From Ulota crispa (lineage: Eukaryota; Streptophyta; Bryopsida; Orthotrichales; Orthotrichaceae), in NCBI GenBank assembly GCA_963920765.1, contig OY987249.1:19316483-19380482 (forward strand): a stretch of 64,000 nucleotides of DNA, in the 5' to 3' direction. Shown here piece by piece: positions 1,425 through 14,720 of the stretch (its first letter is position 1; each line of letters begins with the position of its first letter). The notes beneath the pieces are model-generated. The model saw only the letters and a program-made list of their open reading frames with translations. It did no database searches and was not told where the DNA came from. The position numbers and the translations under genes are program-made.

Positions 1425-1433
1425 ATAAATTAA

Positions 1434-2385
1434 CCCCTAAAGGACCAAGGGTGCTTTTTGAGAAAAAATCTCAGAAACTGCCATATTTTATGGCATTGCC
1501 CAAAATCAAAAATAAAAACCTTTTTTCTCAATTTCCATAGTACAAAAGTTTGTAAAACCAATGTGTGCTAAAGAATTCAGCCTATTTGACTGCACAAATT
1601 GTAAGATTATAACATTTGAAGTGAGGAAAACAACTTCTTTTCATTCTTGCAAAACAAGGCCAACAGACTTTGAGCCTTCCTAGAGTAAAATTTTTACTCT
1701 ACAAAAATTTGAGCTTTTTGACTGTTCACAAGTATATGATGTTAGGTTCACTCATGACAATTTTCAGATGCAAATATAGAGTCTAGCTTATTCTAAATCA
1801 CCCTCCAATGCAAGGAGGTTTAGTGAATTGGCAATACATTAGACATTCTTTCATGATTTCTTGTGCAATGAGGGAGTCTTTTGTTTGAAATTTGAAAGGT
1901 GGAAAGTTGTAGACAAACACTTGGAGTATGTGAAAAAAAGTTTCAAGAGTTTGAGGTTTATAGATTGAAAGATAATAGGGCTTGACGTTATAGGAAAACA
2001 TTTTTTCTTGAAACTACCCAAACATAGTTAACAAAGTTTGACTCCCTTCAAAATGTGATGTGAGAGCTCAATATTTTTTTATTTTTTTGGCAATTGTGCA
2101 TCATGTTTTTTTAGTTACATACTTGCCAAATTTCAAAATTGATGAGAGTTTTAGCTTAAGATTCTTCAAAGATGCTCAAATTGCCCAATTTCTTTTGGGC
2201 AACATAACTTTTGAACCGTGCATCTGACTGCTGAAAAAATTTAGATTTCCACTTGGGCAATACATATTTGCACCTTGTGTAATAATTTTGAGAACATCCA
2301 ATAAAAATTAACTCCATATGAACCTACTCAAGTTCTCAAGTGGTTGTTGAACAACCACTTCCTTGGCCACTTGGTCCTTTAGGGG
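1434..2385. mobile_element. TTAA-type MITE, group A copy 1 (952 bp)
   Basis: Left flank TTAA is followed by CCCCTAAAGGACCAAG. The right end is CTTGGTCCTTTAGGGG-like and is followed by TTAC, one base off TTAA. The terminal inverted repeat is about 16 bp. The interior is AT-rich without a convincing ORF. TTAA target sites with CCC/GGG termini are typical of piggyBac-family elements, and this is the basis for the tentative classification. Confidence 0.65.
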
Positions 2386-2425
2386 TTACAGAACAACTCC
2401 ATTCATTTAATTATTTATGCATGAG

Positions 2426-6145: not shown

Positions 6146-6149
6146 TTAA

Positions 6150-7064
6150 CCCCTAAAGGACCAAGCAAAGTTTTCACCAAAAACTCTTCAAAATTGTCAT
6201 TTTTAGAGCATCAACCAATTTTGAAAACTTTTTTTTTTTTTATGCATATGTGACCGTAGGATCTTGTAGAGGAATGGTTTTGGAAGACGTGGAAAATTTT
6301 TCAGAGTTTTCCACCAATTGGATTGGAAGTTAGAATGGTTTGAATATTCAAAAACGTCTTGTGAAAAACCAGGCAGCTACCCTTCAGAAGGTGAAATTCC
6401 TAAGGAAAAAAGGCCATGTGGGTGGTACTTCTCTAAGTTCCTTATTCCACCTAAGTAAAGTACATGTCAAAAAAGTTTCAACTCATTTGGAGTTGTATAA
6501 CATATGGAAAAGAATTATTAAGTAAAAAAAAGTAGAGAATGACTCAAAACACTAAATCGTTTAGAATTTACTTATGGAAATGAAAAATGCCAATCCCAAT
6601 GGTCATAATGTTGTCATAAACAACCTTCATCCTTTGGCTTTGTTTTTTTTTCCAAAATGTTGAAAATTGAGTAAAATAAAGGACCTCAAAGTTTATTTTG
6701 GAGTAGAGAATCCATAACTGCCCGCAAACAAAAAATCCTCATAACTTTCATCTTGTTGATTTAGACAAAATGGTTTGAAGCTTCCTACATTCACATAAAT
6801 CTCCTAAACCCATTTAAATTTTTTGTTGTTGAAAAAAGTGATTTTTGAAAATCTGCCCAAGCTGCCCGTTGAACGTAAAAACAACATATTAGGCCATAAC
6901 TTTGTACTCATAATTCCAAGTGTCATGAAATTTAGTGCATATGAAAGATAAACCTCGTCCCCACATTCCATTAAAATTTCAGCCTAAAATGTGAAAAGCT
7001 CCAATCACAGGTACCTGCCCAAAATCACCATGTTTCTAAAAAAGGGGGATTGGTCCTTTAGGGG
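6150..7064. mobile_element. TTAA-type MITE, group A copy 3 (915 bp)
   Basis: TTAA (6146-6149) precedes CCCCTAAAGGACCAAG. The right end is TTGGTCCTTTAGGGG followed by TTCA (TTAA with one change). The interior at about 6520-6780 is homologous, in inverted orientation, to the interior of copy 4 at 17888-18699. This shows the two are members of one family and do not merely share end motifs. Confidence 0.65.
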
Positions 7065-7070
7065 TTCACT

Positions 7071-13918: not shown

Positions 13919-14262
13919 TTTTCCACCTTGATCTAAAAACATGGATGTGCAATGGAAAAACTTCAAAGCCTCATTCATCCAAGCAAGGGGCAATGACGGG
14001 GTCAATTCACCACAAACCTACGTTATACAATAGAGTGGTACACGGTACACCTGTTCTTAGTAGAGCAAGACCTATAACCAATTTATGTGAGATTTTATGA
14101 AAAATAGGTTCTCTTCAATTTAGGAAACTTAGTACTTGTGTGCCCACTATTATAAATGTTGATTTAAGGTGCCATTTGTATATGAACCTCGAAACTCCAT
14201 AAAATATTCATTTTTTGTTTAGAAGGTTAATACTTTCTCTTCTTGAAAATTCAATACTTTAA

Positions 14263-14485
14263 CCCATGAAGGGCCCTTGGGCTTTGGAGCTATAATATCA
14301 AATATGGTTGTAACCAATATTTAGAAATTTGAATTAGCTGAAAATTAAGTGTTACAACCATACATATTGAAGGGTTGTATGATGGTGGGTGCATAAAAAA
14401 AATTGGAAAGTCCTCAGAGCAGCTCAAATATGTTTGTACATATGGTCGTACATACTTTTGCAAAGGGCTTCATGACATTCAGGGA
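14263..14485. mobile_element. TTAA-type MITE, group C copy 1 (223 bp)
   Basis: TTAA (14259-14262) precedes CCCATGAAGGGCCCTTGG. The right end, read inverted, is TCCCTGAATGTCATGAAGCC, and it is followed by TTAA at 14486-14489. That right-hand TTAA is also the left target site of the adjoining copy 2. No coding capacity. Confidence 0.7.
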
Positions 14486-14489
14486 TTAA

Positions 14490-14716
14490 CCCTTGAACAA
14501 CGATAGGGCATAGTATATACACCAACGTATAATTGTCATTTGCTACCAACAATTTTTTTATAATTTGAGATCTCAAGTAGCTCACAAGAACCGCATTGAT
14601 CTATTCTCCAACTTCTTTGTTGATCTCAAATGTAGTAGAGGTGTGGATCCATTCCAAATACAAGAAAAATACCTAATATTATAATGGTCGCAAAGGGCCT
14701 TCTTGTCGTTCAAGGG
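14490..14716. mobile_element. TTAA-type MITE, group C copy 2 (227 bp)
   Basis: Intact TTAA on both sides (14486-14489 and 14717-14720). It begins CCCTTGAACAACGA and ends TCGTTCAAGGG, a terminal inverted repeat of about 14 bp with minor mismatch. This is the best-preserved example in the window of the TTAA-CCC...GGG-TTAA structure. Confidence 0.8.
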
Positions 14717-14720
14717 TTAA

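What the first reader, a model, noticed from the sequence alone, without database searches (positions are those of the whole stretch)
14259..14720. Back-to-back MITEs sharing a TTAA target site (piggyBac-like)
Two short elements (14263-14485 and 14490-14716) lie head to tail, with TTAA before, between and after them. The second starts CCCTTGAACAACGA and ends TCGTTCAAGGG. TTAA duplication plus CCC/GGG termini is the defining signature of the piggyBac superfamily. That superfamily is known from animals, fungi and some algae but is not, to my knowledge, an established land-plant transposon. If correct, these are non-autonomous piggyBac derivatives in a plant.
Basis: partly seen in the sequence, partly recalled or inferred. 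Interest (0 to 1): 0.75.

Follow-up and report, generated by a model that had tools for sequence, protein, structure and literature searches.

The report
piggyBac transposon relics in a moss
Two short dead transposons lying side by side in what looks like a moss genome belong to piggyBac, a jumping-gene family best known from animals, and the same genome holds over a hundred, mostly decayed, copies of the piggyBac enzyme gene.

Summary
In detail: two elements (14263-14485 and 14490-14716) lie between three TTAA sites. Both are high-copy families with TTAA borders. An E2 copy inside an E1 copy (L024) is flanked by TTAA on both sides, where 18 of 21 uninterrupted E1 copies have a single TTAA and three a one-base variant. 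The genome (275 Mb; a bryophyte, most likely a moss) gives 120 match rows to the piggyBac transposase domain (best E 1.3e-73), with the catalytic DDD largely kept in 18 copies examined. I judge eight of 20 transposase loci to sit in 5.0-5.7 kb elements ending TTAA-CCC...GGG-TTAA, with ends that follow transposase clades. The MITEs are best filed as non-autonomous piggyBac elements in a land plant. The window pair looks like two solo insertions sharing a TTAA; elsewhere E1-E2 dimers form a subfamily that seems to have moved as one unit. No full-length parent of E1 or E2 was found. The kind is known, and a 2023 review already lists PiggyBac among angiosperm MITE superfamilies. What I did not find in print, in nine piggyBac searches of open papers, is a piggyBac radiation with transposases in a moss.

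The parts
14259..14262 (.). TTAA target site, left
   Evidence: sequence
14263..14485 (+). E1, non-autonomous piggyBac-type element, 223 bp; ends CCCATGAAGGGCCC / TTCAGGGA
   Evidence: ten fetched solos 85-88% identical
14486..14489 (.). TTAA shared by E1 and E2
14490..14716 (+). E2, non-autonomous piggyBac-type element, 227 bp; ends CCCTTGAACAACGA / TCGTTCAAGGG
   Evidence: 13 fetched solos 89-93% identical
14717..14720 (.). TTAA target site, right
14345..14348 (.). internal TTAA of E1; in relative L024 an E2 is inserted exactly here

Best explanation
E1 and E2 are internally empty (MITE-like) members of the piggyBac superfamily in a moss genome. A DDD transposase made by full-length relatives would recognise the TTAA-flanked CCC...GGG ends, cut the element out and insert it at another TTAA, duplicating those four bases. 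In the window one element inserted into the TTAA bordering the other, leaving three TTAAs. Shown: termini, TTAA borders, TTAA on both sides of an insertion whose unoccupied relatives have one, high copy number, and many piggyBac transposase relics in the same chromosomes, some with the same kind of ends. Inferred: that such transposases moved E1 and E2, the order of the two insertions, and the cut-and-paste chemistry.
For: TTAA at 45 of 48 solo ends. L024: E2 in E1's internal TTAA, with TTAA on both sides; 18 of 21 uninterrupted E1 copies have TTAA there, L011, L016 and L019 one-base variants. E1 solo L071 against unoccupied relatives: L052, L018 and L039 have one TTAA at the site, L012 has TCAA. 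PF13843: 120 match rows, best 1.3e-73, all over the cut-off. L042 transposase against PDB piggyBat 9c0f E=1.7e-16 and 6x67 (named Transposase) 3e-13. Catalytic D kept in 17/18, 14/18 and 16/17 copies. Ends of one locus match each other better than ends of different loci: 8.93 against 7.17 of 12, SD 0.34, 0 of 2000 shuffles, 14 of 20 loci usable. End sequences follow transposase clades. MITE ends match 23 hand-picked transposase-element ends better than shuffles for E1 left (49 of 2000 as good), E1 right (31) and E2 right (4).
Against: No full-length parent with the same subterminal sequence was found; only 20 transposase loci were read to their ends, and 6 of the 20 show no inward TTAACC pair. 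E2's left end is not significant (215 of 2000 shuffles as good). A loose count of inward against outward ends around the transposases is weak (16 to 13 upstream, 27 to 17 downstream), and L039 has an outward pair matching 12/12, perhaps a neighbouring MITE. Diverged unoccupied relatives of L063 (CCAA) and L073 (TCCT, TTTT, TCCC, TCTT) keep the spacing but not TTAA, and one of L072 has a one-base gap next to the site (part of that output was cut). A TA duplication inside an obligate TTAA gives the same sequences. No empty site for the window copy itself was found. The 14 control genomes are a weak control, since they seem to be prokaryotes.
Confidence: 0.92

Rival explanations
1. The MITEs belong to another TTAA-duplicating superfamily (Kolobok or Sola3, recalled) that happens to share CCC ends, and the piggyBac transposases are unrelated to them.
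For: TTAA duplication is not unique to piggyBac (recalled); no direct parent found.
Against: Transposase-bearing elements with TTAA-CCC...GGG-TTAA ends in this genome encode piggyBac transposase; three of the four window MITE ends match theirs beyond CCC better than shuffles. Kolobok and Sola3 proteins were not searched for.
Confidence: 0.05
2. Mariner-like element: TA duplication inside a TTAA-preferring context, ends ACCC...GGGT.
For: The filled and empty sites cannot separate TA from TTAA.
Against: Full TTAA at 45 of 48 solo ends with variable bases outside means a four-base target; the transposases found with such ends are piggyBac. Mariner transposases were not searched for.
Confidence: 0.02
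3. The window pair is a copy of the amplified E1-E2 dimer rather than two separate insertions.
For: 35 of the 45 other match rows span both halves in the same order; 4 of 13 aligned dimers keep an inner TTAACCCTT as the window does.
Against: 9 of 13 aligned dimers lack about 8 bases of E2's inner left end that the window keeps; both window halves are closest to solos (the solos were picked as top hits, so this comparison is biased).
Confidence: 0.25
4. Assembly contamination by an animal genome.
For: The superfamily is best known from animals; every named protein relative found is from an animal.
Against: MITE or transposase matches lie on contigs C1 to C11, and the 21-Mb contig C8 carries the window, MITEs, transposases and LHC genes.
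Confidence: 0.01

Closest known systems
piggyBac of Trichoplusia ni (PDB 6x67; that this entry is the T. ni protein is recalled) and piggyBat (PDB 9c0f)
   Same: TTAA target, CCC ends, DDD transposase domain
   Different: host is a moss; transposases only distantly alike; elements 5.0-5.7 kb and mostly decayed
PiggyBac MITEs of angiosperms, listed as a superfamily in PMC10004981 (one passage seen)
   Same: superfamily label, non-autonomous elements in land plants
   Different: the passage shows no transposase with matching ends; here such transposases are present; host is a moss
animal piggyBac MITEs, such as those of corals (PMC2872659, search listing only)
   Same: MITEs assigned to piggyBac
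   Different: host; dimer subfamily with a junction deletion
Plant Tourist and Stowaway MITEs
   Same: short, abundant, non-autonomous (recalled)
   Different: Tourist has a 3-bp TAA/TTA duplication (PMC10004981 passage) and Stowaway TA (recalled)

Membership tests
piggyBac superfamily | TTAA target duplication | tested here: met
   TA within TTAA not separable; some diverged empty sites lack TTAA
piggyBac superfamily | terminal CCC/GGG inverted repeats | tested here: met
   window E1's right end reads GGGA
piggyBac superfamily | DDD transposase encoded by full-length relatives with such ends | tested here: met
   at superfamily level, not a parent of E1 or E2
piggyBac superfamily | C-terminal cysteine-rich domain | tested here: inconclusive
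   by eye in L042: CQCCGTRCRTFCPMCGDVYLCIGDC; no Pfam hit for it
piggyBac superfamily | footprint-free excision | not testable with these tools
   needs an assay
piggyBac superfamily | MITE shares extended ends with its own autonomous parent | tested here: inconclusive
   motif-level match only; ends of 20 loci read
PIF/Harbinger MITE (Tourist) | 3-bp TAA/TTA duplication | tested here: not met
   TTAA at 45 of 48 solo ends

The most novel reading that the evidence does not exclude
Mosses carry an old, land-plant lineage of piggyBac transposons with at least six deep branches that has lived and radiated there, giving plants a native transposon of a type that excises without a footprint.
Probability: 0.5. 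Interest if true: 0.72.

Novelty: new member of a known kind. Interest (0 to 1): 0.55.

Why it matters
[quoted passage not shown] A native plant piggyBac with its own transposases would put the superfamily's host range in land plants on protein evidence, give a coding source to look for behind plant MITEs labelled PiggyBac, and offer a natural starting point for studying footprint-free excision in plants.

Tried and rejected
The exact 17-mer E2 end gave only two inward pairs, each about 230 bp, among its 58 matches, so no long element. BLAST of the E1-E2 sequence against eight transposase loci gave one chance 14-mer. An empty site for the window copy was sought with its own joined flanks and only the flanks themselves came back. 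Counting loose TTAACCCYT sites around transposases was too noisy and was replaced by within-locus against cross-locus end matching. The 23 transposase-element ends were picked by hand, so that test is not blind.

Literature: ten searches, nine of them on piggyBac and one (53) on PDB codes. The listings showed no title on piggyBac in a moss (one search listed 20 of 225, 15 of 576, one search found 0 papers). Only passages of papers were read. PMC5505980 on Physcomitrella speaks of the insect piggyBac as a tool not yet tested there. PMC10619864 came up only for the word piggybacking. Against novelty: PMC10004981 lists PiggyBac among angiosperm MITE superfamilies; PMC10813416 says piggyBac has been isolated from insects, fungi and plants; PMC10794571 lists PiggyBac among superfamilies in plants, citing a classification; PMC4438587 lists it among superfamilies found in all groups; PMC6890710 and PMC8319324 have table rows PiggyBac for a fern (1230 copies) and a grass (1 copy of 75 bp). 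For: PMC2528002 (2008) names five superfamilies in plants, without piggyBac. None of the passages seen shows a moss element or a plant piggyBac transposase with ends.

Changed in checking: interest lowered from 0.62 to 0.55 because of PMC10004981 and PMC10813416; the count of intact empty sites in E1 corrected to 18 of 21.

Full report
What is there. The window has TTAA at 14259, 14486 and 14717, with a 223-bp element E1 and a 227-bp element E2 between them. E2's inverted repeat is 24 nt with the TTAAs, 83% complementary. As a single DNA strand E2 folds end to end (z -3.1). E1 and E2 share 81% over the last 31 bp, so they are related families in the same orientation.

Copies. A search with the pair gave 46 match rows from 40 scored of 5458 candidates, so counts are lower bounds. 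Besides the window, 35 rows span both halves at 78-84% identity, four hold E2 alone at 92-93%, and six are second pieces. Separate searches gave solo E2 and solo E1; by inspection none of their listed places is one of the 35 dimers. Exact end motifs occur 58, 1291 and 452 times against 0, 3 and 0 for reversed controls. In 24 solos 45 of 48 ends are TTAA; the exceptions are two E2 right ends and one E1 left end. The best pairwise identity among them, the window included, is 94.4% for E2 and 92.2% for E1, so this sample holds no very recent copies.

Dimers. Of 13 dimers aligned, nine lack about eight bases of E2's inner left end and four keep an inner TTAACCCTT. The shared deletion and fixed order point to one dimer that amplified by its outer ends. 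The window pair keeps the full junction and both halves resemble solos more, so I read it as two insertions at one TTAA. The solos were chosen as top hits, which biases that comparison.

Target duplication. In L024 an E2 sits inside an E1, with TTAA on both sides, and E1 resumes without loss. Of 21 uninterrupted E1 copies including the window, 18 have TTAA there; L011 has TTAC, L016 CTAA and L019 TTTA. L071 (E1) has unoccupied relatives without a gap at the site: L052, L018 and L039 with one TTAA, L012 with TCAA. Others are less clean: L063 (E2) has a relative at window 60385-60203 with CCAA; L073 (E1) has four relatives at 72-74% identity with TCCT, TTTT, TCCC and TCTT; L072 has one with a one-base gap beside the site. 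They keep or nearly keep the spacing. Part of the output was cut and not seen.

Transposase. PF13843 gives 120 match rows (116 of 528 candidates scored), all over the cut-off; a few genes give two rows, and all but ten rows have in-frame stops by my count. The control (0 of 14 genomes) is weak, as those genomes seem to be prokaryotes. Twenty loci of 8.5-9 kb were read. L042 is a 5746-bp element whose ends agree in the first 12 nt after TTAA; its protein is cut by one stop, matches Pfam at 2.6e-59 and PDB piggyBat at 1.7e-16. L055 and L056, whose matches are split, were left out of the residue count. In the other 18 copies the three catalytic aspartates are kept in 17/18, 14/18 and 16/17; all six changes are to asparagine. 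L045 and L051 have no stop within the matched part and keep DDD.

Ends. Fourteen of 20 loci have an inward TTAACC pair around the transposase and six do not. I regard eight as convincing, by distance and by agreement within a transposase clade: L039, L044, L042, L043, L048, L050, L052, L053. Within-locus end matching beats shuffled pairing; six loci also have outward pairs, scoring 1-8 of 12 except L039 with 12. For the match of MITE ends to transposase-element ends, shuffles as good numbered 49 (E1 left), 31 (E1 right), 4 (E2 right) and 215 (E2 left) of 2000, and 8 for the E1 left form common among copies.

Host. The genome has 56 LHC match rows. One LHCB is 94% identical to an unnamed JGI protein, and 89% over its whole length to Sphagnum fallax and Marchantia polymorpha; angiosperms in the 120 listed of 1017 hits are mostly 84-88%, with one (Jatropha) at 89% over 81% of the length, so the margin is small. 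Its second-best PDB hit, 8htu, is called PpPSI-L in PMC10005731 (figure legends); that Pp is the moss Physcomitrium patens, and that the third hit 7xqp is from the same moss, is recalled. I take the host as a land plant with confidence and as a moss as most likely; the species is not known.

Relatives. Searches of 5.8 billion proteins gave 17 and 31 hits. In a tree of 29 rows, made before the second search, the 18 moss copies fall with seven unnamed database sequences in one clade (100/100), in several deep branches, and are not one group. That fits long residence better than one recent transfer, but the origin of the unnamed sequences is unknown.

Verdict. The superfamily is known and has been named for plant MITEs in print. 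The moss host, the transposases with matching ends and the depth of the radiation are what I found no report of in the searches named.

Noticed in passing
window 1430-2389 and 6146-7068: Two longer (0.92-0.96 kb) candidate piggyBac-type elements with ends CCCCTAAAGGACCAA agreeing in 16/16 and 15/16; the right outer four bases are TTAC-like and TTCA-like, decayed.
   Followed up: partly
G000 C2:36765124 / 36779670, C7:18203169 / 18223004, C10:676128 / 785346: Transposase matches with equal or near-equal scores in opposite orientation 15-110 kb apart, as if parts of inverted segmental duplications.
   Followed up: no
L045, L051: Transposase domains with no stop in the matched part and DDD intact; possibly young or domesticated.
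   Followed up: no
L018, L012, L017: Dimers that lie next to or inside the TTAACCC-TTAA ends of other family members, which looks like self-targeting.
   Followed up: partly
transposase copies L040, L046, L054, L057, L058: All six lost catalytic aspartates are asparagine, as C-to-T decay would give.
   Followed up: no
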